Part shown: positions 1-23,995 of the stretch, in pieces
How the letters are laid out: the number at the start of each line of letters is the position of its first letter
Position numbering within the stretch: the stretch's first letter is position 1
From: Zancudomyces culisetae
Taxonomy: Eukaryota; Kickxellomycota; Harpellomycetes; Harpellales; Legeriomycetaceae
Length of the DNA stretch: 23,995 bases
Direction of reading: 5' to 3'
Assembly (NCBI GenBank): GCA_001969505.1
Contig: LSSK01000938.1
Coordinates: 1 to 23,995 of the forward strand
Notes under the pieces: generated by a model
Database searches by the model: none
What the model was told of the DNA's origin: nothing
What the model saw: only the letters and a program-made list of their open reading frames with translations
Translations under genes and position numbers: made by a program

Positions 1-578
1 TTAATTCTTGCAGAATCTCCTTCACCTATCAACGATTCCAGCTTTCTTTTCAGTGATATAAATCCATCTTCTAAGATCTGGTCTTCCATATTTGCTAGTC
101 CAGTAAATGTAAACACTGGTCCCACCTGTCTTCTACGCATTCTATTGAATGCTTCGTTTGTTGTGGTAAAAAGGTTTGGCGGTAATAGCCCAAACTTTTC
201 ATACTCCATCGATTTGGGATGTTTGTATGTGGCTAAAATCTGCTTGGCATCAGACATAGTTGTGATGGAAACAAATTTTGGCCCCAACCTGACTGTTGGT
301 CCATATTTCTTGTGATATTCTGCCAACGCAAAGTAGATTTTTCCTTGTGCAACCTTTAAGTTAAATGGAAGATTTGTGAATCTAGCCCACCATGGACCTG
401 GAATGTGTTTTAGTGGATCAAAAAGAAACGCAACAAGTACTTTCAAAGCGATGTATGTGGCCAACACACTAGCTATTATACGCCTGTCGGAAAAATACTC
501 TACCAACTTTTGATAGTCGATACTTTTGAGTAGCTGGAGTATTTGACTCCCTTCAACCATTTTACTCAAACTCGGCAT
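1..578 (-). CDS. Cytochrome P450, N-terminal part (left copy, cut by window edge)
   Basis: Membrane-anchored fungal cytochrome P450 (haem monooxygenase). The first 192 codons are visible and the gene runs off the left edge, so the I-helix, ExxR and haem-Cys motifs are outside the window. The ATG is at 578-576. Residues about 34-55 form a hydrophobic anchor, followed by the proline hinge HIPGPWWARF near residues 58-67, which is typical of the start of microsomal P450s. Later come KYGPTVRLGP and NRMRRRQVGPVF, the latter resembling the helix-C region. It is nearly identical to the right-hand copy at 23280: three amino-acid differences were seen (Pro2, Ser37 and Leu39 here against Ser, Gly and Ser there) and one silent change in the rest. 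The substrate and CYP family cannot be told from this portion. Confidence 0.88.
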   Translation of the reverse strand, partial: MPSLSKMVEGSQILQLLKSIDYQKLVEYFSDRRIIASVLATYIALKVLVAFLFDPLKHIPGPWWARFTNLPFNLKVAQGKIYFALAEYHKKYGPTVRLGPKFVSITTMSDAKQILATYKHPKSMEYEKFGLLPPNLFTTTNEAFNRMRRRQVGPVFTFTGLANMEDQILEDGFISLKRKLESLIGEGDSARI

Positions 579-770
579 ATTCAGTTTTTCCCCTATTCTA
601 TCTCCCTTTCAGTATTTATTAATGAGTTGGTAAGTTTATTCAAATGTTTTCTCTATCTTTCAATTAAAACTAAGTTTTCGGGTTAGAATGTATTTAAAAT
701 TTAGCCAAAAACAATGTTGCGATGCAGACGATTTGAAAAGTAAAAGATGGATGAGATGGGACCCTTTACA

Positions 771-776
771 TTTATA
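771..776 (-). promoter_or_regulatory. TATA-like box of left P450
   Basis: In gene sense this reads TATAAA within gctataaatg, about 195 bases upstream of the ATG at 578. The surrounding block, about 610-805, is conserved in the right-hand copy. The assignment rests on sequence and position only. Confidence 0.45.
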
Positions 777-838
777 GCTGTGTAAAGACAAGTATACAAT
801 CATCGTTTTAGGCTTTGGTGCCTAAACATAACAATATT

Positions 839-844
839 CACGTG
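839..844. promoter_or_regulatory. Palindromic CACGTG (E-box) in left P450 promoter
   Basis: A perfect CACGTG palindrome lies in an island, cacgtggatattc, that is kept in both P450 promoters although the bases between it and the TATA region have drifted. CACGTG is the core site of bHLH and some bZIP regulators in fungi. That it is a shared regulatory site is an inference from this local conservation. Confidence 0.4.
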
Positions 845-1141
845 GATATTCCCGACGAGGGAAAAATGTCGGAGTTATTTTCTAATTTCCGTCATATGTT
901 TCACTTTTTTGCTTTATAGTGCTTTGAAAAATATCAGGGGATGAAGTTGTCAACGTGACCATACTTTTTCATATGTTTCTGCTCTGTACTACTCAGAAAA
1001 TGGTAACAATTCAATGTTTTTTCAAATTTGAAATGCTTGGAATCAGAGAAAATATTAGTGCATAACAAGTGAAGAACAAAACAAACACAAAAGCTAGAGC
1101 AGGTGAAGTAGTAAAAGACAGGTCAGAGTGTAGTAAAAGCA

Positions 1142-3485: not shown

Positions 3486-5456
3486 ATGATGAATCTAGAG
3501 AAAGAAGCAACTAAGGCGAATCCCCAAAATATATTTCGAATTAATGATAGGTATGGATTCAAGACTGCAGTGCTGGTTTTTGCGGTAGAGCAGAAAAATC
3601 TGCTATTTAATAGAGTGCGGACTGCTTTACCGAAAAATCTGCCGATCTTTCCAATAACATTTTTCGTAGTATGGGGAAAATCAATCTCCCTAATTGTTTC
3701 CAATTCACCACAGCAGAAAGAGAGTAAGGAAAACAGAACCATAAATTTGGATAATAGGAATTATGCGTTGAGGGAAATATTCAAAGCAAAGATCAAGAAA
3801 AAAAACGAAAGAAGAAATGCAGAGACAAGGGCCAGAAATCTGACAGAACAACGATTTTACTCGAGCTTTAGCATTACAAGGCAACAAAATTACCAAGAAC
3901 AGGAACGAGAACAGGAACAGGAACAGGAACAGGAACAGGAACAGGAACAGGAACAGGAACAAGCAAAGGAAAAAGAGACGGAACGAAAACAATCATCACA
4001 AACAGCAAGCATCAGGACACGAGAAGGTAAAATTGGCAAAATGGATGCCTATCTTTATCAACACAAAGATCAGGGAGCCTTCCAGCAGATGCAACGGACG
4101 ATCAACGACATTTTGAAAAGAGGAGATTCCAGGCTGCTTATCGAAATTTGTCACAAGATAAAGGATCAGAATGGATTCCTATTGGATCCTAGAATTTTTG
4201 AATTAATCTTAGTAAGTTTAAGAGTTTTCTTCTTAAATGATTTGTCGATAAGCATATGGAATCACCAAAGGCGACAAGAGAATTACCGATCCACAGTTAG
4301 AATTGAAAGAGAAATAATCCGTGCGTACATTAAGGTTAACAAGATTAAAGAGGCGATTAAGGAGTTTTCAATAGCTAAAAGACTGTTTGGGGATAACGTA
4401 GAAGATCTATACTCTTTGACTGCGTGTATGACAACATGTTTAATTAAAGCTAAATGTACTGATTTGGCACAAATGATTGCAGAGGACTACTTCGAAAATT
4501 TGACTATAAAGAAAGGCAGCAAAGAAATAGATTTAAAAAAGTTAAGTGTTTTTGTAAAATGGGTCATGGAGAAAAAGAACGTCTCTTACGCTGAATACTT
4601 GGTAAATTTTATGGAAAACAGACTGAAACTTCAGCCAGAGTTCCATCCTTACGTATATATCGTTAAGTATTATGCACAGGCGGGAGATTTTGGAATGTTG
4701 AATAAGAAGTTGCATGAAATGAAAACGAAAAGCGTGCGTATTAATGAAATAATTGCAAGTTCTATTTTACACGGGATTGGGCATTGCAGGGATGATACCT
4801 CTTTCCATTTGTTTCTTATGTTTATTATCGACAACAAGAAGCACATACAGCTAGATATGCCCCTGGTAAAATGTATATTTGACTGTGCACGACGAATTGG
4901 ACACATAGACTATGCATTAAAATGGTACCGAGCTCTCCGAAAAATCACATTTTCCGACTTTGACTATGAAAAACACTTAAAATACGAACCTCCTACGTTT
5001 TTGTTGGATGAAAAGCGCCTCATAATGGCTATCCATGAGAACGACTCCGAGTCAATTGTCACTAACACAAACCCCAAGGATTCCAAACTCCCTGATCCCG
5101 AAATATTTCTAACTCAGTTTCAGAGACGTGGTGATATTGGACTAACCCCTCATTTCCCCGCCTTCATTGCTCGAACCATTTCTACTTTTTATCATCTCTG
5201 CGATCAAAAATCCATTCAACCCTTGCTTTCAGATGTTTGGAGCGAACTTGTACATTTACAAAATCTATTCCCCTCTTTTAGGGTTGACAACTCCTACTAC
5301 TTTATTTACTGCATCTCCCTTTCTGACTTGAATGCATTGCATTTACACTTTAATTCTGTTGTCGAGCTGATGAACTGTCACTCTGTCTTCTTTACTGGTC
5401 GTCAGAAAAAGGCTCTCTACAAACGTTTGAAAAGACAACAACAGGAACAGCAGTAA
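3486..5456 (+). CDS. PPR-repeat protein, probably mitochondrial
   Basis: The open frame is 656 codons long. The C-terminal two thirds are helical, with PPR-like pairs near residues 270-305 (IIRAYIKVNKIKEAIKEF), 386-420 (PYVYIVKYYAQAGDFGMLNK then LHEMKTKSVRIN) and 456-490 (IFDCARRIGHIDYALKWYRAL). PPR proteins bind RNA sequence-specifically, in fungi usually mitochondrial transcripts. RFYSSFS at about 123-129 resembles a mitochondrial presequence end, but it sits far from the first Met. Residues 142-157 are a pure Glu-Gln repeat encoded by a hexanucleotide tandem. The N-terminus is uncertain. The first 90 residues look poorly coding, and an intron-like 3' end (ccctaattg...caccacag) occurs near 3690-3714, so a short intron or a downstream start is possible. 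The C-terminus after about 490 carries no motif I can name. Confidence 0.75.
   Translation: MMNLEKEATKANPQNIFRINDRYGFKTAVLVFAVEQKNLLFNRVRTALPKNLPIFPITFFVVWGKSISLIVSNSPQQKESKENRTINLDNRNYALREIFKAKIKKKNERRNAETRARNLTEQRFYSSFSITRQQNYQEQEREQEQEQEQEQEQEQEQEQAKEKETERKQSSQTASIRTREGKIGKMDAYLYQHKDQGAFQQMQRTINDILKRGDSRLLIEICHKIKDQNGFLLDPRIFELILVSLRVFFLNDLSISIWNHQRRQENYRSTVRIEREIIRAYIKVNKIKEAIKEFSIAKRLFGDNVEDLYSLTACMTTCLIKAKCTDLAQMIAEDYFENLTIKKGSKEIDLKKLSVFVKWVMEKKNVSYAEYLVNFMENRLKLQPEFHPYVYIVKYYAQAGDFGMLNKKLHEMKTKSVRINEIIASSILHGIGHCRDDTSFHLFLMFIIDNKKHIQLDMPLVKCIFDCARRIGHIDYALKWYRALRKITFSDFDYEKHLKYEPPTFLLDEKRLIMAIHENDSESIVTNTNPKDSKLPDPEIFLTQFQRRGDIGLTPHFPAFIARTISTFYHLCDQKSIQPLLSDVWSELVHLQNLFPSFRVDNSYYFIYCISLSDLNALHLHFNSVVELMNCHSVFFTGRQKKALYKRLKRQQQEQQ
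3909..3956 (+). repeat. (GAACAG)8 coding microsatellite
   Basis: Eight perfect in-frame copies of GAACAG encode (Glu-Gln)8. They are followed by a degenerate copy, GAACAA, and preceded by related GAACGA/GAACAG units from about 3897. Because the unit is a multiple of three, copy-number change leaves the frame intact. Confidence 0.95.
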
Positions 5457-5793: not shown

Positions 5794-6168
5794 CTATTTG
5801 GTCTCATCCAAACTGCTTTCTTTTTCAATCTTTTCATCGAGTACCTCTTGTTCTTGTAGCTCCTGATTATCTTCCTTCTGTTGGTCTTCATCAGATTCTT
5901 CATCATTGAGTTGAGAAGAATACTCTTCAGGGTGTGCCCTGAAGCAATCCTGCATGGCCTGAAATGCATCTATACATTCCATACCCTTTGGCTCACCAGT
6001 TGAGTATACAAAGCATGAGAATGCTGCCTTAAACTCTTCACCGCAGGTTCCGTGCGCCATACCCCCCAGGCACGGGCAATCCCAATTGATTTCGCCAGTT
6101 TCTTCATTAAAAGCCGAGACTTCCTCCTGCTCTCTGCTTTCGTTTGTAGCTGACATCTCAATTTCCAT
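5794..6168 (-). CDS. MIA40: Mia40/CHCHD4 disulfide relay oxidoreductase, short soluble form
   Basis: This is the intermembrane-space import receptor that oxidises incoming CX3C and CX9C proteins and passes electrons to Erv1. The protein is 124 residues. The redox motif Cys31-Pro-Cys33 sits in [10 protein letters not shown]. It is followed by twin CX9C pairs, Cys42/Cys52 (GEEFKAAFS between) and Cys65/Cys75 (IDAFQAMQD between), and by an acidic Glu/Asp/Gln-rich tail to the end. I start at the ATG at 6168-6166, because the upstream in-frame codon at 6177 is TTG; an ATG five codons in is the alternative. There is no N-terminal presequence or transmembrane anchor as in the yeast enzyme. It resembles the short animal and plant form, which is imported by the relay itself. 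No convincing upstream exon was found. Confidence 0.93.
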
Positions 6169-6579
6169 CGTATGCAAATGATGATATTGTTATTTTTTTT
6201 TCCTTCTGGTGTCTTGAACACTCTTGTTTCACGCAAAAAAAAAAAGCCTAGTAAAACAGTTCAAAGCTAGAAACAGCTTGTTTTATCTTATTTTTCTCTC
6301 CTACCAAAGTATGAATGTATAGGAAAAAAGCCAAGTTGACAATGATTACTAATCTACTTTGATTTGAAGCCAAACTTTTTGATCTCTGGGCTTTTCAGAG
6401 CATGAGTTAAAAAAATTTTTTCCTTTTATTTCTTTGCGGGTTTTTTTTCTAGATTTTTCTTGAGTAATCTCTGAAATTTAGCCAATAGGAAAGAAGGGAA
6501 TAAACTGAAGGAATTGACACAAAGAGTCTAAAGCTCAAAATAGTATATTGAAAACCCAAAAACACTAACGAAAAGCAAA
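6169..6579. other. Short intergenic region upstream of Mia40
   Basis: Mia40 and the DUF4272-like gene are in tandem on the minus strand. This 411-base stretch must hold the Mia40 promoter and the neighbour's 3' UTR. It is rich in A and T runs, for example at 6234-6244. No gene or clear box was seen. Confidence 0.45.
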
Positions 6580-10236: not shown

Positions 10237-13200
10237 ATGTGTCCAGGAGCTTTCGAAAACATAATTAGCCATACTAACGAATCTGTTGCAGAAGAAATAC
10301 CCGAAGACTCGCTATACGGTAGTTGCGACAACCTGACCTCAAGTGTTATATCAAGCAATAAAAGCTTATTTATTCTTTCCGAAAAGCCACAGCCAAACCT
10401 ATACTATGTAAAATCACCCTTTCAGCATGGAAAGTCAACACACGAGTTCCAAAAGTTTTCTTTTGGGAAAAGACTATTGAAAATGAAAAAAGCGGCTAAA
10501 ATAAAAGACAGGAGGTTTGGTAGTGATATCATACAACACAAAAAGTTTACAGTAAATACATCTCTGACTGGAAAAGAGGATAGTAGCCCTCTGCTTATAG
10601 ACAATAGCTTGGTTATGTCAATCTTACCGACCACCGAAAAGAAAAGTGTTTCTAAAAGCAAGCTTCCAATTAAAAGCATAGGAACTCCATATGCCTTTAA
10701 GCACGAACTACATGTTGTTTTTGATAAAAAAGATAACTTGTTGAAGGTAGGTTGTACTTTTAAAATTTTAAATACTAGCTATATAATGTATAGTATAAAA
10801 GAGCATTGGTTAGAATATTTGTATAAATGCGCAACCTATCCCCTTTCATAGGCAAATAACCTGACACTAGGACATAACCTTCAGCGTATGCATTTGGCTT
10901 CTAAAGGTAATTGAGTTAAACCTCATGTTTAATAACTTTGTAATACATAATACATTAAATTGTTTCGCCACAGCCATGGCTATATATTTTGTAAAAAAAA
11001 TAAAAATTGCACAGAAAGCTGGATATCAAGCTGAAATGTTGTGGTTAATACAATATTTAGGCACAACGAGTGCAGATAACCTTGTCATTGAAAAGAGCCT
11101 TGATAGGCGCTTAGATGAAGTTGAAGAAAAAAGTATTAACGATGAGAGGTGCGCAGAGGATCCTGAGGAAACTGTGACCGAGTCGGCACGTATTTACTCT
11201 CCAACTGAAGAAGGATCCGACGATCCGGAAATAACAGGTCAAGAACACGAGCTAAAAAAGCTGTATGATGAAGATAGTACATGTGTATTGTATGACAGTA
11301 AAAATGACTCCACTCTTACAAAAGTTGATACTACTGTAAGTATTTATATTCAGAAATATCTTTACTAATTTTCATTATAAAGAGAGCAATAGGTTTAAAT
11401 AGGAGTATATAATTTATATCATTCTTTTAAAAAGGCCAAAAAATATGACTTGGGTTGTACATAATATTGTAAAATCATAACAGTAAGAAAGGCTAGAAAA
11501 GTATAGATAGAAAGAGAAAGCTCACAAAAGGCTATAATTTTATCCAAATAGAGCAAGAAAACATCGACAGGAGTATTCAGAATCAGTACAGTGGTAGATA
11601 TGGATAATTCTCTGTCAGAGATCGCCGAAAAATTGTTAATAGATAACAAAGTACCTACAAAATGCAATAAGGAGGAGGAGTATCAAGCTATAAAAGAGAT
11701 CGAAACACTTGGGTTCTCCGAGGTTCCGTCCTATCACAGCAACGAGACCACAAAACATAGCACAACTTTTATTTCGGTCCCACAAGAAATGAGCGCCAAT
11801 GCACCATATATAATAAATGACAAACAAAGTCCAATCTTGGAAAAATCCAAAGTAATTGAAAATAACATTATATTTTCTGACTATTCTGATCAAGAATATT
11901 CAGGTGGAAAAACCGAAAAAGTCAATGACGAAACTTTTGACACGCAAGAGGCACATGAAGAGGATTCTGGTAACATCAAAAGTAGTAGCACTACAATCAG
12001 ACGCTCGTCAACAACAGGTGACATAAATATATTTGGGGACTCGAAAAGTATTGTCTCTGAGGCAAGTCTTACAATGACTCCTAGTTTTTTTATTAAGGAT
12101 GGCGATTTTTTTCAGGGAATTGATACCAATCCACTAGGCAGTGACTGGGGTAGTTCGATTTCAAAGAAAGAATCAACCGAATTGAGCTATAGAGACCTTA
12201 TATACACCACCTGTTCACACCCACGTAAGGTTTTATATTCAAGATCTAATAGGGAAACCACCGAGCACAAGAATATGATAGCATCACATACAAAGCTTCC
12301 GGAGGTTTTAGCGCCTAAAAGCAGGAAAATTGATTTTAAGGTTAAAAGGCTAGAAAGGCTTAGTAAAAATAGCGCCAAAGGAAAATCATTCACTATAAAT
12401 GAATTGGCATGTAAAAGAAGCACCAAGGAACGCATCATGTTGCGGAGAAACCCTGAGCCTGTATTTTGTAGAGCGGCAAGCAATGGGTATTCTGAAGAAA
12501 CTTGTGGAGGATATTATGTATCTGTTGCTCCTGTACCCAGTACTAACAGTGGTAAGTAAAACTAGAATAAGAAAATTTAAAAGTAAAAAATAAAAAAACC
12601 ATGCATTTTAAAAACCTGCAAAGATGGTCTTAGCATATATAAAGGTCTTATACATATACATATACATATAAATTCATAATGGTTAACATAAACGTGTAGA
12701 AACTCAAGCTGTTCTTGACATAACCCTACCACAGCTCTTGATGGATATAAAGAATATCGATATACTGCGGTTTTACTGCAGTGGGCAAACTAGTGGTAAC
12801 TATGTAGCAATGCTTAAAGCAAATGGGAGTATGGTACGTGCGAGTGAAAACCATTTTCATTAAGTGTACACAAGCTGTTTACCCTAACACTCTTTTCTTG
12901 TTAATATTGGTAGGTAATTCTGAAAAAAGTCTCAAAGGAGAATAAACCCAGGTTGGATAGACTCAAAAGAGAGATATCACTTTTACAAACTCTTTCATGT
13001 GCCAATTTGATAGCATTTCTGGGTATAGGCCTTGACACCGAGTGTATTTGGGTAATTGTACTTTTTTTCTTCAAGGGTTTCTCTTAGTGATACTATTAAC
13101 AGGTACTAAAGCTTCAAGAAATATACCAAATAGGTTGCTTCTGAATTTATGGACAGGCTTGCTCTTATAAACCTGCTGCGTCTGTACCCAAAACACATAC

Positions 13201-14090
13201 TTCCAATACCACAAGCTGCCCTGTGCCTGTATTCGGTTATCTCAGCAGTAGAATATCTTCATAGACATTCAATAGTTCACACAAACATAAATAGTAAAAA
13301 TGTTCTATTTAACAGTAAAGGAGAGGTAAAGCTAGGTAAGTTGCTCTAAAATTTATAACCTGAATCAAATTTAATCTGAAATGTTCCCAAAATGCAGTCA
13401 CTAATTATTTTATTATACTGGGTTTTTTTTTGGATGGGGCGGGTATGCTTGAATGTGGATTAATGCAAATTTAGCTGGAATATTTTCTCTCAAAAAGTGT
13501 CTACCAACGCAGAGTATATATATTAAAAGCGCTAGCACTCATGACACGGCTGCGCCTGAGGTTGGAAATCAACTTGGTTACTGTCAAAAGGTAATATTAT
13601 ATACGTCTTCCCAAGTACCTTTACTGTCTTTTTTCCATTGTTTTTTTTTAGCTGCAAAAAAAAAGGTGTAAAATTTCTGATAACATTGGTAAATAGTCCG
13701 ATATATGGTCTGTTGGGATACTTGGATACAAAATACTGTATGGGTGTAGACCATACAGTACACAAAATCCCGATGATGCGTTGCTGACCATCAGCACTGC
13801 CGGGATTTCTATTGCGTTAGAAGAACAGCCTGTAAACACTGGTGAGGGTTATGCTGATTTGATGGATTTTGTCAGAGATGCGTGCGCATTCAGCGTCGAT
13901 TTGCGAAAATCAGCCTCCGAATTGGTTATGGTAACTAATATATTCATCGATACTATTGCGTTCAGTTGCCCTAATTTAGTCTGTAGTTACTAATATATAC
14001 TTTTACCCTCCTAATTAAAATTAGCACCCATTTTTCGAAAAGAGGGCAAGCCAAGAGTCAATGCTTTCTTTTACCAGCAAGGCAAAGTAA
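10237..14090 (+). CDS. PAK/Ste20-like pseudokinase with CRIB motif, 9 exons
   Basis: Proposed exons: 10237-10746, 11015-11335, 11552-12551, 12700-12833, 12914-13051, 13134-13335, 13475-13590, 13697-13930 and 14025-14090 (TAA), giving 906 residues. Residues 148-161 (IGTPYAFKHELHVV) fit the CRIB pattern ISxPx(2-4)FxHxxHVG for Rac/Cdc42 binding. About 450 low-complexity Ser/Glu/Lys-rich residues follow, then a kinase fold at about 628-890. Kept: Lys659 (VILK), Glu675 of helix C, Asn757, Ala-Pro-Glu at 795-797, and DIWSVGI at 809-815. Lost: HRD is His-Thr-Asn at 750-752, DFG is Gly-Ile-Phe at 770-772, and the glycine loop is CSGQTSG at 637-643. The distance from VKL to APE equals that in PAKs, so these are substitutions and not misalignment. 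Exons 3-9 are well supported by phase and homology. The exon 1-2 junction is the weak point: extra exons at 10852-10906 and 10974 onwards are also in frame. Confidence 0.82.
12642..12670. repeat. (TACATA)n microsatellite in intron
   Basis: About four TACATA units lie in the intron that separates the long linker exon from the first kinase-fold exon of the PAK-like gene. It is a simple AT-rich repeat with no other sign of function. Confidence 0.7.
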
Positions 14091-14188: not shown

Positions 14189-14458
14189 ATGTATAGTAGC
14201 TTTACAATTTTAGCACTAGGTACATGGGCATTTGTTACCATCACCATCATTATTTTCTTTAAATCGGCTTTAAAAAATTTTTTTTATCCAAGAAAACTTG
14301 ATTTGAATAAATTAAAACTAGAGATTTACATGCTATTTTTGTGGCGATTATCATTAAAAAGAAATGTTCTTAAAGAACTTGTACCTTTGAAAGTCTTTTT
14401 TTTGTTGGAAAAGAGGCTGGATATTTTAGATGAATTCCAGGCTAAAAACAGTTTATAA
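14189..14458 (+). CDS. Doubtful 89-aa ORF with one hydrophobic segment
   Basis: The ATG at 14189 opens an 89-codon frame in the 405-base gap between the pseudokinase stop and the preferred Pus3 start. Residues about 5-26 are hydrophobic (FTILALGTWAFVTITIIIFF), and the remainder is Lys/Leu-rich. No family is recognised. It occupies the space where the Pus3 promoter should be and it is AT-rich, so it may well be chance. It could also be an upstream ORF. Confidence 0.15.
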   Translation: MYSSFTILALGTWAFVTITIIIFFKSALKNFFYPRKLDLNKLKLEIYMLFLWRLSLKRNVLKELVPLKVFFLLEKRLDILDEFQAKNSL

Positions 14459-14495
14459 GCAACTAACCCTAACAGTGAGAAATTCAAGATACACA

Positions 14496-16031
14496 ATGAG
14501 TACTAGCAATCTGTCAACAGTTAATGGATGTCCTGTGACTGAATACGACAACGTTGAACGCAGTAATCTTATTGCACGTATACAGCAACTGGAAACCGAG
14601 CTTTCTAAGAGGGATTTGGATCTAAAAAAGCTTAGAAATAAGCTTTCGACTCAAAACAGAAATATCCACATGGATTATACGGACAGGCGAAAAGATTCCA
14701 AAAAAAACAAAAGTGGCGAATTTGACATTAAAAAGTACCCCAGAAGGAAGATAGCTCTGAAAGTGAGCTATTTTGGCTGGGATTATTACGGATTTACGAA
14801 AAACGGAAATTTGCTGGACGATGAGAAGGGCAAAGAAGAACAAGAAACCTGGCCCACAGTAGAAGGCGAGTTATTTATCGCACTGAAACGGTGCCACATG
14901 ATCGTAAATGAGGCAGATTGTGATTATTCTCGGTGTGGCAGAACCGACAAGGGTGTAAGTGGCTTTGGGCAGGTAATATCGCTATATGTTAGAACGAAGG
15001 GGGAGTTTGTTGAGCAAACGGCTGGTGATAGTGACCAGGAATTGTACATGGATCCTATCAACAATGGAAAAGCAGTAAAACTACCCAGCGAAGAAGCCGA
15101 ATTCCCCTATCCAAAAATGCTAAATTCACTTTTACCTCAATATATACGGGTTATAGCGTGGAGTCCTGTAAATTCAGAATTTAGTGCTCGTTTTTCATGC
15201 AAAGCAAGACAGTACCGCTATATATTTCCGAAACAAAACCTGGATATTGAGGCAATGAATAAAGCTGCACAGTTATATATGGGTACGCATGACTTTCGAA
15301 ATTTTTGTAAATTAGACCTAGGAAAAAACATAAAGAATTTTGAGCGTACAATTCTTGAAGCTAAAGTAGTACCGCTGGAGTTTAGCCCGCTAAACCCGTT
15401 TTTTGGAGACAGCAAGGAAATGGGCAGTTGGTACCAATTTCGAGTGAAAGGAACTGCATTCTTGTGGCACCAAGTACGCTGTTTGGTTGCCATTCTATTT
15501 TTGGTTGGTCAGGGACTGGAGAGTCCTTCTATTATTTCCAAGATGATGGATATAAATTGTTTTTCAGGTAAACCTGAGTACGAAATGGCTTCTGACATTC
15601 CGTTGATTCTCGAGGACTGCGAATATTCGGAAAGTGACGTCAATTGGGTATACTTCAATGGAAATTCCAGTGATTATTCTTCACTAACTCTTCTGGACAA
15701 AGGTTTAAACTCCATGTGGCAAGAATTGGGGATTAAGGCTATAACATCCACCCTTTTACTCTATAAAATGAATACACTTCCACTAGTCAGCCAGGCATCC
15801 ACCACCTCTGAAGATGTAGGGTCTGAATCCTCATTAACTTGCTGGCAGGATTTGAGAAAAACGAATCTATCTAACTCTAAGGCCCCCGAAATAATCGCGG
15901 GTGGTGGAAAGGTATTAAACATTAAAAACTATATCCCAATCGAAAAAAGAAAGTGCAATGAGCCGGTTGAGCTTCGCAACAAAAGATTCAGGGAAAAAAT
16001 GGCACTCAAACTGCCAAATGAGCAATTGTGA
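14496..16031 (+). CDS. PUS3: tRNA pseudouridine synthase Pus3/Deg1
   Basis: TruA-family enzyme that isomerises uridines 38 and 39 in the anticodon stem-loop of tRNAs. The product is 511 residues from the ATG at 14496 (A at -3). An in-frame ATG at 14430 would add 22 residues but has a poor context (T at -3). Residues 24-50 form a charged coiled coil, as in other Pus3 proteins. The catalytic domain starts at about 83 (RRKIALKVSYFGWDYYGF). The catalytic Asp is D151 in SRCGRTDKGVSGFGQV. The supporting Tyr is Y240 in ARFSCKARQYRYIFP. GTHDFRNFCK is at 263-272 and FLWHQVRCLVAILFLVGQG at 322-340. The C-terminal tail is basic (KRKCNEPVELRNKRFREKM), and the conserved RNKR-type ending is seen in the family. 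No intron was found. It lies downstream of the pseudokinase on the same strand but is an independent gene. Confidence 0.95.
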   Translation: MSTSNLSTVNGCPVTEYDNVERSNLIARIQQLETELSKRDLDLKKLRNKLSTQNRNIHMDYTDRRKDSKKNKSGEFDIKKYPRRKIALKVSYFGWDYYGFTKNGNLLDDEKGKEEQETWPTVEGELFIALKRCHMIVNEADCDYSRCGRTDKGVSGFGQVISLYVRTKGEFVEQTAGDSDQELYMDPINNGKAVKLPSEEAEFPYPKMLNSLLPQYIRVIAWSPVNSEFSARFSCKARQYRYIFPKQNLDIEAMNKAAQLYMGTHDFRNFCKLDLGKNIKNFERTILEAKVVPLEFSPLNPFFGDSKEMGSWYQFRVKGTAFLWHQVRCLVAILFLVGQGLESPSIISKMMDINCFSGKPEYEMASDIPLILEDCEYSESDVNWVYFNGNSSDYSSLTLLDKGLNSMWQELGIKAITSTLLLYKMNTLPLVSQASTTSEDVGSESSLTCWQDLRKTNLSNSKAPEIIAGGGKVLNIKNYIPIEKRKCNEPVELRNKRFREKMALKLPNEQL

Positions 16032-19700: not shown

Positions 19701-21208
19701 ATGGGTTGTGGTAATAGCAAAGAGGACTATGGAGATGTTCAAACTAGCAAGGAGATCGACGACCAGATAATTAGGGACAAGCAGACTATGCAAAAGGAAG
19801 TAAAGATCTTGTTGCTGGGTATGTAATTTTTACTTTTATAGGCACAGTTTCTTGATATGCGAAAATCCGATCAGGGTTTCTTGTTTAGCAAGGAGTATGG
19901 TACATGAAAGAAAGATATATTCAATGATGTATAAAGCTAAAACGCCCATTTTAAACCTTATACATCTGTTACGATACCCTATATTGTATTCGCAATATCT
20001 GGTAGTTAAAAGGTGATGAAGGGTGAAAAGTATAAAATAATTTTCAACTGAGTTGGGGTTCCAAACCTAACCAATGTTTTAATTCTGACACAAACCTTAT
20101 AGGTGCTGGAGAATCTGGTAAAAGTACAGTAGTAAAGCAAATGAAGCTTATCCATGAAAATGGATACACGTACGATGAAAGGGAATCATTTAAAGAAATC
20201 ATTTTTTCGAACTGCATGCAATCGGCACGAGCACTCTTAGAGGCCATGGATACCCTAGAAATAGATTTAGAAAACCCTAGGAACCAAATAAATGTCGATC
20301 TAATAATGGATACACCCACGCAGATAGAATCAGATGACTTCCCTCCAGAACTCATGATGGCAATTAAAAGCATTTGGAGCGATGGTGGCGTTCGCGAGTG
20401 CTTTTCACGATCCAGCGAGTATCAGTTGAACGATTCTGCAAGCTAGTAAGTCCTCTTGTAGATTTTTTTATTCTGCTATTTGTGTGAGCAGCGCATCTCC
20501 GAAGGGGTGTATAAATTACCTTAATTTTTAAATTGGCTGATAGTGTAAAATATAAATACGTGTGTGTGTGTGTGTGTGTGTTTACTTATTTGTATTTCTA
20601 TGTGTAGCTATTTTGACTCGCTGGACCGAATTGCACAGCCAAATTACATTCCTACAGACATGGATATTCTTAAAGCCCGCGTAAAAACAACAGGGATAAA
20701 CGAGACTATATTCAATGTTGGTGATTTAGTATATAAAATGATTGATGTCGGTGGTCAACGATCTGAGCGTAAAAAGTGGATACACTGTTTTGAGAATGTA
20801 ACCGCAATTCTATTTTTGGTCGCAATTAGCGAATATGACCAGGTTTTAATTGAGGATGAATCGTCCAACCGTATGCACGAAGCTCTAACTCTTTTTGACT
20901 CGATCTGTAACTCACGCTGGTTTTCAAAGACATCAATCATTCTTTTCCTAAACAAAATTGATCTTTTTAAGGAAAAGCTTCCAAAGTCACCGCTTGAAAA
21001 CCATTTTCCTGATTATAAGGGTGGTCAAAATATCGAGGCTGCAAAAGAGTATCTTCTTCAGCGTTTTACATCGTTAAACCTGTCAAAATACAAACAAATT
21101 TACACCTACTACACCTGTGCCACTGATACCAACCAAGTGAAGTTTGTTATGACTAGTGTCAACGATATTATTATCCAAAATCATTTACGTGATATTGGCA
21201 TTATCTAA
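19701..21208 (+). CDS. Heterotrimeric G-protein alpha subunit, G-alpha-i/Gpa1 class, 3 exons
   Basis: GTP-binding alpha subunit acting at the plasma membrane below seven-helix receptors. Exons 19701-19818, 20103-20445 and 20608-21208 (TAA) give 353 residues, the length of G-alpha-i/o and fungal group I subunits. Gly2 and Cys3 (MGCGNS) are the myristoyl and palmitoyl sites. The P-loop is GAGESGKST at 40-48, interrupted by intron 1 within the Gly40 codon. Switch I has Arg178 and Thr181 ([10 protein letters not shown]), switch II is [12 protein letters not shown] with Gln204, G4 is NKID at 269-272, and G5 is TCATDT at 323-328. All catalytic residues are intact and sit at the standard numbering. 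The tail LRDIGII lacks the Cys at -4 that pertussis toxin modifies in animal G-alpha-i. Introns of 284 and 162 bases end in TAG. The receptor and pathway are not visible here. Confidence 0.96.
20560..20581. repeat. (GT)n microsatellite in G-alpha intron 2
   Basis: A run of about 11 GT dinucleotides ends 26 bases before the intron 3' splice site at 20607. Between them is a pyrimidine-rich segment ending in tatgtgtag. Because it supplies many GT dinucleotides close to the acceptor, its length may vary between strains and might affect splicing. The latter is inference. Confidence 0.9.
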
Positions 21209-22999
21209 ACCTTTATTAATCAGTAATGTCGTTTTCCTATCCCTTTTTTTATCTGTCTTGACTTTATTCCCTTCCGCAAGTATGCGTTTTGAAAAAAACA
21301 TTCAAAAGACACGCTTGCTCTACGCTATACCCTTCTAAGCTCGTTGCTTGATTTATATTTTATTTTAACTATTGATATATATATACTCCTTCTTTGCTGC
21401 TCTCAAATAATTTTTTTTGTAAGAACCTTCTTGAAATAAACGCACAGGTCAAAGGTCGCAAAAAAAAAGATTATTGCTGGTTTAATTTCGTAGGGCAACC
21501 TTCAAAAACTTGCTACAGAGAATCAGAAAATGAGAAAATGCTAGCGACTAATAAGGTTGATAAGATGACACACCCCCTCCCCTTCCACCTCAAAAAAAAA
21601 GGAATTAGAAAGCAATACACTTTTTTAAATGAGTCTAAGACACAATGAGCAAAGGTAGAGAATATCTTACAAAATACGAGCCTTCTCAATTAAAGATACA
21701 TTTCTTTTGAAACGAATACTCTATGAGTCTACAGTTTTTGGAACAGTGGGTACATTCGATCAAATGCTCATTAAATATAATTCTGCGATACTCCTGAATT
21801 TTAATATAATGGATATGACTCGGAAAACTGAGTCAACAATCACATACTTGCAATTATACCAATTGTCATTCCCTAAGCAAGGAAACACATTAAGTTGCGG
21901 TAATCGTTATGTTTTGGTAAAGAAATACACATCTTTCCTTATATATCATGACCCTCAATGTAACTGGCAACGAGTAAAACATAAATGATATTCAATAACT
22001 CATATATTATAAAGAATTGATTGCCATCACTTGAGTCAAGCTTCAACAAGTATCGAAAGTTTAGAAATAAAAAGACGATTTGTTTGCGTTTCAAGCAACA
22101 GCATTTTTACTCTGTTTTTGTGAAAAGGAGGGCACAGTTTACAGTAGATACGAGTTTGAAGTTAAAGCACGTGAAACTTGTAGTTTGAGTTACTACAAGT
22201 ACTAGACTGAAGCAGCACTATTTCCGATTATAGCGACTGTCCTATTCTCCCTTTTAATACCAAATAATATTTTATTACAATTTAAGGGCCTGAATAAAGA
22301 GGTATGACTGCTTCCAAATGAATCAAAGTACAAAAAAAAAACACCATTGCCACACTATTCGTTAGATTAACAGGATCATCACAGCTAGTGTATTGAAAAA
22401 TAATAAAAAAGGAAAGTTAGGGGTAAAACGGATGTTTATAGCCGATCCTTGTATATTTAGATTTTATGTTTCGAAAATTGAAAAGTGATCTATACTGTTC
22501 AGCACCACGATCATAATATGAAAGCGATGAATTTTACTAATCGAACAATCTATAATAAAATAGATCACTGAACTAATTTGCAAATTTTGTGAACTGAAAC
22601 AGTTCGGTTCCCGAAGTCATCACAAGAACAAATAGAATGCCTAGTTTCTTAAATATAAATTCATCTGCTTTAAAAGATCACATCATTATTTGTACAGTAT
22701 TATTCTTAACTATAGTTATTGGTTTATCTACAAGTTACCAGGGTTAAAGAGTCGAATAGCTGTAGAAAACAATTGAGAAAATAATATATAAAGAAAAAAG
22801 AAAAAGGCGGAAAAAGAGAGAAAGGGGCAATGTATTACTTTTAAGAAACAGTTTTTAGCCAGATTGTTATATATTTAGATTTATGCAAAGAAATAATTAA
22901 AAATAAAGAAACTGTTGTATGTAGAACAGATAAGTGGTGTTTGAAAATAACATGACACAAAGATGAAACAGAAATAACAGTAATAAGAAAGTAAATGCG
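21209..22999. other. Intergenic region between G-alpha and right P450
   Basis: It begins with the G-alpha 3' UTR. Open frames at 21394-21648 and 21707-21988 (plus) show no motif and start at non-ATG or weak codons. A purine-rich tract (gaaaaaagaaaaaggcggaaaaagagagaaagggg) lies near 22791-22828. No RNA gene or transposon was recognised. Confidence 0.45.
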
Positions 23000-23024
23000 C
23001 TATTTTTCTTTTGTTGCGAATATC

Positions 23025-23030
23025 CACGTG
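23025..23030. promoter_or_regulatory. Palindromic CACGTG (E-box) in right P450 promoter
   Basis: Same island (gaatatccacgtg) as in the left copy, about 250 bases upstream of the ATG. It is conserved while neighbouring bases have diverged. Confidence 0.4.
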
Positions 23031-23092
23031 ATTGTAGTTTGGATTAAGCATCAAAGCCCAAGACGGCGATGATATACTTGTCTTTACACAGC

Positions 23093-23098
23093 TATAAA
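23093..23098 (+). promoter_or_regulatory. TATA-like box of right P450
   Basis: TATAAA within gctataaatg, 182 bases before the ATG A-residue. It is identical in the left copy, and it follows the shared block gatatacttgtctttacaca. Confidence 0.45.
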
Positions 23099-23279
23099 TG
23101 TAAAGGATCCCATCTCATCCATCTTTTACTTTTGAAAAAGTCTGCATCGCAACATTGTTTTTGGCTAAATTTTAAATACATTCTAACCCGAAAACTTAGT
23201 TTTAATTGAAAGATAGAGAAAACGTTTGAATAAACTTACCAACTCATTAATAAATACTGTGAGAGAAGAGAGAGAAAAA

Positions 23280-23995
23280 ATGTCAAGTTTGAGTAAAATG
23301 GTCGAAGGGAGTCAAATACTCCAGCTACTCAAAAGTATCGACTATCAAAAGTTGGTAGAGTATTTTTCCGACAGACGTATAATCGCTGGTGTGTCGGCCA
23401 CATACATCGCTTTGAAAGTACTTGTTGCGTTTCTTTTTGATCCACTAAAACACATTCCAGGTCCATGGTGGGCTAGATTCACAAATCTTCCATTTAACTT
23501 AAAGGTTGCACAAGGAAAAATCTACTTTGCGTTGGCAGAATATCACAAGAAATATGGACCAACAGTCAGGTTGGGGCCAAAATTTGTTTCCATCACAACT
23601 ATGTCTGATGCCAAGCAGATTTTAGCCACATACAAACATCCCAAATCGATGGAGTATGAAAAGTTTGGGCTATTACCGCCAAACCTTTTTACCACAACAA
23701 ACGAAGCATTCAATAGAATGCGTAGAAGACAGGTGGGACCAGTGTTTACATTTACTGGACTAGCAAATATGGAAGACCAGATCTTAGAAGATGGATTTAT
23801 TTCACTGAAAAGAAAGCTGGAATCGTTGATAGGTGAAGGAGATTCTGCAAGAATTAATTACTACACTTACTTTCAGGGAATCACAACTGATGTTATCGGT
23901 CATATGATTTTTGGAAAACCAATAGGGGCTGTCAATGCGGGTGGTCATCCTCTAACAAAATGGGTTAGTGACTCCATAACCGTAGCTGCTGTCAA
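23280..23995 (+). CDS. Cytochrome P450, N-terminal part (right copy, cut by window edge)
   Basis: Fungal membrane-bound P450 running off the right edge. 238 codons are visible from the ATG at 23280. The membrane anchor is at about 34-55 (IIAGVSATYIALKVLVAFLF) and the hinge HIPGPWWARF follows. Then come KYGPTVRLGPKFVSITT and NRMRRRQVGPVFTFTGLANM. The visible frame ends inside FQGITTDVIGHMIFGKP and TKWVSDSITVAA, where P450 helices E-F would lie. The haem-binding Cys is not in the window. It is paired with the outward-facing left copy and almost identical after codon 39. Promoter sharing suggests the two are, or were recently, co-regulated. Confidence 0.9.
   Translation, partial: MSSLSKMVEGSQILQLLKSIDYQKLVEYFSDRRIIAGVSATYIALKVLVAFLFDPLKHIPGPWWARFTNLPFNLKVAQGKIYFALAEYHKKYGPTVRLGPKFVSITTMSDAKQILATYKHPKSMEYEKFGLLPPNLFTTTNEAFNRMRRRQVGPVFTFTGLANMEDQILEDGFISLKRKLESLIGEGDSARINYYTYFQGITTDVIGHMIFGKPIGAVNAGGHPLTKWVSDSITVAAV

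What the first reader, a model, noticed from the sequence alone, without database searches (positions are those of the whole stretch)
10237..14090. PAK-like CRIB protein whose kinase domain has lost its catalytic residues
Splicing nine exons gives a continuous frame with a CRIB motif and a full-length kinase fold. The catalytic Asp of HRD is Asn752, DFG is replaced by Gly-Ile-Phe (770-772), the HRD Arg is Thr751, the catalytic-loop Lys is Asn754, and the PAK activation-loop Thr aligns with Lys786. VAIK-Lys659, Glu675, Asn757, APE and DIWS are kept, and the VKL-to-APE spacing equals that of active PAKs. Known families: PAK/Ste20 kinases are Cdc42/Rac effectors and are normally active. The inference is a Rac/Cdc42-binding pseudokinase that works as a scaffold or as a competitor of the active PAK. 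I know of no described fungal example, but I cannot search.
Basis: partly seen in the sequence, partly recalled or inferred. Interest (0 to 1): 0.88.

Follow-up and report, generated by a model that had tools for sequence, protein, structure and literature searches.

The report
Dead PAK-like kinase in gut fungus
A fungus that lives in the guts of insect larvae carries an intact gene for a PAK-type signalling protein that keeps its switch-binding motif but has lost the residues needed to work as a kinase, and it belongs to a small family of unusual PAK relatives in its fungal group.

Summary
Nine exons at exactly 10237-14090 splice into 906 codons with a CRIB core and a kinase-like domain in which HRD reads HTN and DFG reads GIF. 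Splicing cannot bring HRD back.

The window is a contig of Zancudomyces culisetae. I call the gene PSK1. The genome also holds ordinary PAKs and a related gene, PSK2. Relatives found are from Smittium, Spiromyces and Mycoemilia: a divergent PAK family, here seen only in Kickxellomycotina. The five other members keep HRD-Asp and DFG-Asp but have odd catalytic loops. PSK1 alone lost both Asp, and its ATP pocket is altered. The CRIB core is kept, while the autoinhibitory segment is missing in all four members whose CRIB could be read.

Intron positions shared with PSK2 and Smittium support the gene model. An open frame despite strong divergence argues against a pseudogene.

Best reading: a non-catalytic Rho-GTPase effector, acting as a scaffold or competitor. 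This is inferred; neither expression nor binding was tested. It is a new variant of a known kind.

The parts
10237..14090 (+). whole gene PSK1, 9 exons, 906 codons plus stop
   Evidence: gene model; homology; coding signal
10678..10731 (+). CRIB core, residues 148-165 (IGTPYAFKHELHVVFDKK); both His, Pro and Asp kept, HVG reads HVV
   Evidence: (PBD 14.8 bits, residues 148-165)
10747..11014 (+). intron 1, phase 0, inside the CRIB/PBD region; same place and phase in PSK2 and the C71 PAK
11015..11335 (+). exon 2: begins with the eroded second half of the PBD; the autoinhibitory (KI) segment is not recognisable
   Evidence: alignment
11552..12551 (+). exon 3: long, unconserved linker
   Evidence: PSK1 linker not above shuffles against any of five relatives
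12780..14036 (+). kinase-like domain, residues 638-889, over exons 4-9
   Evidence: Pkinase 1.3e-32; alignment
12917..12925 (+). VAIK region reads VILK: Ala to Ile657, Lys659 kept
13278..13301 (+). catalytic loop HTNINSKN, residues 750-757 (HRDIKSDN in the ordinary PAKs)
13336..13474 (+). intron 6, phase 1, between VKL and AGIF; at the same position the annotated Smittium mucronatum homologue has a 30-residue insert that reads like a retained intron
13477..13485 (+). Gly-Ile-Phe (770-772) in place of DFG
13931..14024 (+). intron 8, phase 0, before HPF; same place and phase in PSK2, absent from the C292, C71 and C240 PAKs

Best explanation
PSK1 is an intact, catalytically dead member of a divergent PAK family found here only in Kickxellomycotina. 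Shown from sequence: CRIB core kept, kinase fold signature kept, both catalytic Asp lost, ATP pocket altered, autoinhibitory segment absent. Inferred: it is recruited by a GTP-bound Rho GTPase (Cdc42 or Rac) at growth or polarity sites and acts there without catalysis, as a scaffold that brings a partner through its kinase-like surface (possibly PSK2 or an ordinary PAK) or as a competitor for the GTPase. With no kinase left to hold in check, the autoinhibitory segment would be dispensable. Nucleotide binding is predicted to be lost.
For: Intact 906-codon frame over nine exons with coding-type codon use overall. In 30 simulations of neutral decay each, started from PSK1's own frame, the fewest in-frame stops were 3 at 90%, 5 at 80%, 19 at 60% and 25 at 45% protein identity to the start; PSK1 has none, yet is only 32.8% identical to PSK2 in the kinase-like domain. 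Of 34 kinase-domain columns invariant in the ten other aligned sequences, PSK1 keeps 22, including Lys659, Glu675, His750, Asn757, Ala-Pro-Glu 795-797 and Arg877. Of the 12 lost, seven are, by recalled roles, at the glycine loop, ATP pocket, catalytic loop, DFG or P+1 site (G642S, A657I, D752N, D756K, D770G, Y792D, W793T), three are conservative (I658L, V688I, L884V) and two are neither (E819K, P825R). CRIB core: profile match E 1.3e-9, with intron 1 at the place it has in the C71 PAK. The autoinhibitory segment is missing in 4 of 4 family members whose CRIB could be read and present in 3 of 3 Z. culisetae PAKs read there (C71, C292, C240). Only the CRIB and kinase-like parts are conserved, the linker is not, so those two are the likely working surfaces.
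Against: No expression, binding or activity data. Pfam PBD is below its cut-off and the second half of the PBD is eroded. The PSK1 branch is very long (3.06 changes per column), as relaxed constraint would also give, and of 77 columns invariant in six ordinary PAK kinase domains PSK1 keeps 39, fewer than the 48 to 52 of the four other family members aligned. No orthologue sharing the full loss was found, but the search was insensitive: it missed PSK2 (P0009), which is in the database. The partner and the GTPase are guesses.
Confidence: 0.6

Rival explanations
1. A gene on its way out: PSK1 lost function recently and drifts as a pseudogene with a frame not yet broken.
For: Very long branch in the tree (3.06 against 0.77 for PSK2 and 0.2-0.3 for the Smittium rows); losses of 12 of 34 otherwise invariant residues; no protein record for it was found.
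Against: No stop or frameshift in 906 codons over nine exons. Neutral drift to 90% protein identity alone already gave at least 3 stops in every one of 30 runs, and to 60% at least 19. In-frame codon use is about six standard deviations above shuffles. Of the 34 invariant columns, 22 are kept.
Confidence: 0.2
2. A working kinase with unconventional chemistry, as known for some proteins that lack a canonical residue.
For: VAIK Lys659, Glu675 and Asn757 are kept. WNK kinases lack a canonical residue yet are active (PMC4718504, passages seen).
Against: Both catalytic Asp are lost, the catalytic-loop Lys is Asn, the glycine loop and the VAIK Ala are changed, and the P+1 loop reads STHDT. No substitute acid is apparent in the loop.
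Confidence: 0.06
3. A gene-model or assembly artefact: the true gene is an active PAK.
For: No transcript evidence was available; introns 2 and 3 are set by splice signals alone; draft assembly.
Against: HTNINSKN is read inside one exon. PSK1 is only 23-25% identical to the four ordinary PAK kinase domains compared. Introns 1, 4, 5, 6 and 8 are backed by relatives. The one stretch looked up at DNA level, 129 bases at 10708-10836, gave a single match in the genome held.
Confidence: 0.03
4. A functional dead kinase that does not bind Rho GTPases: the CRIB remnant is a relic and the protein works through its kinase-like surface alone.
For: PBD below the Pfam cut-off, second half eroded, HVG reads HVV.
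Against: Both CRIB His, the Pro-Tyr and the Asp are kept in 4 of 4 family members read. The PAKs C71 and P0015 also lack Gly at that site.
Confidence: 0.11

Closest known systems
PAK / Ste20-Cla4 p21-activated kinases
   Same: CRIB core followed by an STE20-type kinase domain; best solved-structure match PAK1; one intron in the CRIB shared with the Z. culisetae PAK on C71
   Different: no catalytic Asp, no DFG, no recognisable autoinhibitory segment; lies outside the ordinary PAKs in the tree (AU p 0.0016)
PSK2 of Z. culisetae (P0009, annotated pakC) and relatives P0010, P0011, P0012, P0129
   Same: same family: CRIB form [IV]G[ST]PY..[KR]H[DE]-H in the four whose CRIB could be read including PSK1, introns shared with PSK2 or the Smittium genes, 27-33% kinase-domain identity of PSK1 to the four measured (PSK2, P0010, P0011, P0012)
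   Different: they keep HRD-Asp and DFG-Asp (HMDICSDN/DFA, HCDVRSDN/DFS, HTDIRSDN/DLG, HCDIRSDN/DFS, HTDIRSDN/DLG), so by the usual definition they are divergent kinases, not pseudokinases
STRAD pseudokinases (STE20-related adaptors)
   Same: STE20-related pseudokinase; STRAD-alpha has GLR for DFG and works in a complex with an active kinase (PMC4718504, passages)
   Different: no CRIB (recalled); binds ATP, whereas PSK1 is predicted not to
VRK3 / BIR2 type pseudokinases
   Same: nucleotide pocket filled by bulky side chains (PMC4718504, passage); compare Ala to Ile657
   Different: unrelated families without CRIB (recalled)
SltB and PskA of Aspergillus nidulans
   Same: fungal pseudokinases (PMC4557415, passages)
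   Different: SltB is restricted to Pezizomycotina and pairs the pseudokinase with a protease-like domain; no PAK origin is described in the passages seen

Membership tests
PAK (p21-activated kinase) | CRIB/PBD domain | tested here: inconclusive
   Core present (profile-profile E 1.3e-9); single-sequence Pfam 14.8 bits, below the cut-off of 21.3
PAK (p21-activated kinase) | STE20-type kinase domain C-terminal to the CRIB | tested here: met
   Pkinase 1.3e-32; PAK1 top structure match
PAK (p21-activated kinase) | autoinhibitory (KI) segment after the CRIB | tested here: not met
   not recognisable
PAK (p21-activated kinase) | catalytic motifs HRD, DFG, GTPYW | tested here: not met
   HTN, GIF, STHDT
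PAK (p21-activated kinase) | groups with ordinary PAKs in a tree | tested here: not met
   AU p 0.0016 against (group named after the tree was seen, and PSK1 is a long branch)
PAK (p21-activated kinase) | binds GTP-bound Cdc42/Rac | not testable with these tools
   needs protein
Pseudokinase | lacks at least one of VAIK-Lys, HRD-Asp, DFG-Asp (definition as in PMC4718504, passage) | tested here: met
   lacks two of three
Pseudokinase | retains the protein kinase fold | tested here: met
Pseudokinase | no phosphotransfer | not testable with these tools
   needs protein
Pseudogene | broken frame or splice sites | tested here: not met
Pseudogene | dN/dS near 1 | not tested
   no close orthologue DNA was at hand; PSK2 is too distant

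The most novel reading that the evidence does not exclude
Kickxellomycotina evolved from a PAK a lineage of GTPase-sensing adaptors in which catalysis and autoinhibition decayed together while GTPase recognition stayed. Zancudomyces carries the end point (PSK1, nucleotide-independent) beside a less decayed partner (PSK2), and PSK1 works by pairing with, or opposing, PSK2 or the ordinary PAKs at Rho-GTPase sites.
Probability: 0.3. Interest if true: 0.65.

Novelty: new variant of a known kind. Interest (0 to 1): 0.5.

Why it matters
Pseudokinases are known, and so are PAKs. A natural PAK-derived protein that keeps the GTPase-binding core but has lost both the enzyme and its own inhibitor did not appear in the listings of the paper searches (some listings were capped, and subscription papers and preprints are not held). 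The family offers a graded series, from divergent to fully dead, in related fungi. That makes it possible to test in what order a kinase loses chemistry, regulation and binding, and whether Rho-GTPase output can be tuned by a non-catalytic PAK.

Tried and rejected

The PSK1 database search returned 8 proteins at 23-27% identity, none with the family signature. It is word-based and missed PSK2, so it does not show absence. It does suggest that PSK1 is not annotated as a protein of about 500 to 1585 residues.

Orthology of PSK1 to PSK2 or to the Smittium genes stayed open: PSK1+Smittium has support 78/70, PSK1+PSK2 is not rejected (AU p 0.208).

Linker and N-terminal regions were compared pairwise; only the Smittium-Smittium and Mycoemilia-Spiromyces linkers stood out clearly from shuffles (z 13.1 and 24.9; the next highest 2.9). 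dN/dS was not attempted because divergence is too large.

Rows dropped: five of nine further PAK hits (P0018, P0019, P0024, P0037, P0049) lacked the glycine-loop pattern and were left out. In one search four of nine PAK hits (P0013, P0014, P0016, P0037) did not match the CRIB pattern and were not shown. In one search, P0015 was left out of the PAK CRIB alignment because it aligned poorly past the core. One search listed 120 of 302 hits; the other 182 were not seen. P0010 and P0129 show no CRIB; their annotated models may be incomplete. Paper listings seen: 25 of 30, 15 of 168, 15 of 25, 10 of 2,618, 20 of 33; some searches listed all they found.
Full report
WHAT IS THERE. The window is a whole contig (C284) of a 23.1-Mb assembly in 859 contigs. 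The organism is Zancudomyces culisetae, an insect-gut fungus of the Harpellales (taxonomy; abstract): the paralogue PSK2 on contig C653 (64,189 bases) matches the database protein P0009 of that species at 100% over the searched region, and P0009's longest contig has the same length. At 10237-14090 nine exons splice into 906 codons; all eight introns are GT-AG and the phases fit. I call the gene PSK1.

THE PROTEIN. Pfam finds a protein kinase domain (E 1.3e-32, residues 638-889) and, weakly, a PBD/CRIB (E 0.035, 14.8 bits against a cut-off of 21.3, residues 148-165). The six-frame PBD search of the genome at E up to 0.001 listed neither PSK1 nor PSK2. PAK1 is the best solved-structure match (E 9.1e-26). 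Against the PAKs of the same genome the catalytic loop HRDIKSDN reads HTNINSKN, DFG reads GIF, and GTPYW reads STHDT; VKL-to-APE spacing equals that of C292, C71 and C139, while C240 is five residues longer. Lys659, Glu675, Asn757, APE and Arg877 are kept. The roles of these sites are general knowledge of protein kinases. The review PMC4718504 (passages seen) defines pseudokinases by loss of VAIK-Lys, HRD-Asp or DFG-Asp and notes that some fill the nucleotide pocket with bulky residues, which Ile657 would do.

IS IT A REAL GENE. The frame as a whole scores as coding: -0.004 bits per codon in frame, -0.122 +/- 0.019 in 200 shuffles, and -0.11 to -0.15 in the other five frames, which hold 23 to 96 stops. 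Exon by exon the true frame is best in 7 of 9; in exons 5 and 9 another forward frame scores higher. Training was on 3428 codons of five long frames of the same genome, some with low-complexity runs. Independent support for the splicing comes from relatives. The annotated Smittium mucronatum protein P0011 carries a 30-residue insert, which reads like a retained intron, exactly at PSK1 intron 6. The annotated S. culicis protein P0129 lacks, to within one residue, the stretch between PSK1 introns 4 and 5, as a skipped exon would give. That these are introns in Smittium is inferred from the proteins; I had no Smittium DNA. PSK2 shares introns 1 and 8 in place and phase, and the C71 PAK shares intron 1. 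Intron 7 rests on splice signals and the kinase alignment; introns 2 and 3 lie in the unconserved linker and rest on splice signals and open frame alone. A neutral-decay simulation gave at least 3 stops at 90% and at least 19 at 60% protein identity in every one of 30 runs each; PSK1 has none, though it is 32.8% identical to PSK2 over 293 aligned columns. Recent loss of function cannot be excluded this way.

THE FAMILY. Six-frame searches of the genome found ordinary PAK kinase domains on C292 (C387 holds a partial copy), C71/C836, C139 and C240, with PBD domains over the cut-off on C292, C240, C71 and C836. A PH domain is encoded upstream on C71, as in Cla4-type PAKs (recalled). The nearest relative of PSK1 in the genome is PSK2 (C653; same coding sequence on C696), 961 residues in my model, with CRIB form IGSPYSIRHDLHIEVD, catalytic loop HMDICSDN and DFA. 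Protein searches found P0010 (Spiromyces aspiralis), P0011 (S. mucronatum), P0012 (Mycoemilia scoparia) and P0129 (S. culicis). Among the 159 proteins held from the three searches, the catalytic-loop form HxD[IV][RC]SxN occurs in these five only. The lineages I looked up (Zancudomyces, S. mucronatum, Spiromyces, Mycoemilia) are all Kickxellomycotina. In a tree of 16 kinase domains the six family members stand apart from ten ordinary PAKs (100/100, branch 1.71), with PSK1, PSK2 and the two Smittium proteins together (100/98). Placing PSK1 with the ordinary PAKs is rejected (AU p 0.0016), as is placing it with Spiromyces and Mycoemilia (p 0.0023); these groups were named after the tree was seen, and PSK1 is a long branch, so the p values are not strict. 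Of 13 columns where the four other aligned family members agree and differ from all six ordinary PAKs, PSK1 shares 4. Whether PSK1 is closer to PSK2 or to Smittium is open. The five other members keep HRD-Asp and DFG-Asp. VAIK-Lys is kept in four of them; P0129 lacks that stretch in its annotation. All five lack the HRD Arg, have Arg or Cys for the catalytic-loop Lys, and have Ala for the first glycine of the glycine loop; DFG reads DFA (PSK2), DFS (P0010, P0012) or DLG (P0011, P0129). Only PSK1 meets the usual pseudokinase definition. PSK1 is also the most eroded: of 77 columns invariant in six ordinary PAK domains it keeps 39, the four others 48, 52, 52 and 50.

CRIB AND AUTOINHIBITION. In the four members whose CRIB could be read (PSK1, PSK2, P0011, P0012) six columns are invariant: Gly, Pro, Tyr, both His and Asp. 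The profile of these four matches that of seven PAK CRIBs with probability 96.4%, E 1.3e-9. Pfam alone is below its cut-off for PSK1, P0011 and P0012 and reports none for PSK2 (P0009). The segment that follows in PAKs (NPQAVLDVLDFY in C71) and forms the autoinhibitory KI part (role recalled) is not recognisable in any of the four, and is present in C71, C292 and C240 (the CRIB of C139 was not read). Some database PAKs, such as P0015, also lack it at that place, so its absence is not unique.

HOW IT MAY WORK. Only the CRIB core and the kinase-like domain are conserved between PSK1 and its relatives; its linker and N-terminus show no similarity beyond shuffles. The simplest mechanism is recruitment by a GTP-bound Rho GTPase followed by non-catalytic action, as scaffold or competitor. 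This is inference. PSK1 also has a basic stretch (73-92, 9 Lys/Arg of 20) that could help membrane binding; untested.

LITERATURE. Ten full-text searches were run; I saw the listings, some of them capped, and passages of a few papers. 'PAK pseudokinase' occurs in no paper held. Fungal pseudokinases are on record (SltB and PskA, PMC4557415, passages). PMC8778642 mentions MLKL-like homologues in Glomeromycotina (passage), PMC8847673 reviews protozoan CRIB proteins and its main text has no 'pseudokinase' (term search), and PMC3218828 lists one PAKA kinase and many likely NEK pseudokinases in Giardia (passages). The main text of the Z. culisetae genome paper PMC12611240 has no 'kinase' (abstract, two sections and a term search), and that of the Harpellales genome paper PMC5954228 has no 'PAK' or 'pseudokinase' (term search). 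Subscription papers and preprints were not searched.

VERDICT. It is a new variant of a known kind, of moderate interest until expression and GTPase binding are shown.

Noticed in passing
window 1-907 (-) and 22959-23857 (+): Both ends of the contig carry inverted copies, 93.3% identical over 910 bases, of the 5' part of a cytochrome P450 gene; the contig probably ends in this repeat.
   Followed up: partly
window 20036-21208 (+): A G-protein alpha subunit gene, in at least two exons.
   Followed up: no
window 14430-16031 (+), 5797-6189 (-): A tRNA pseudouridine synthase gene downstream of PSK1, and a CHCH-domain protein gene.
   Followed up: no
window 3486-5456 (+): A 656-codon open frame with an acidic Gln-Glu repeat near its start and no Pfam match at E 0.001.
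   Followed up: no
L019 (contig C653), PSK2: The database model P0009 appears to read through the last intron; my model ends in HPFLRL... and has 961 residues rather than 976. PSK2 also has an insertion of roughly 100 residues in its C-lobe.
   Followed up: partly
P0011 and P0129 (Smittium): Annotated proteins contain what look like a retained intron and a skipped exon at positions homologous to PSK1 introns 6 and 4/5.
   Followed up: yes
contigs C653/C696, C71/C836, C316/C475 and others of G000: Several loci occur on two contigs with equal search scores (99.86% identical over 6628 bases for C653/C696, the one pair compared), as in a redundant or two-haplotype draft assembly.
   Followed up: partly
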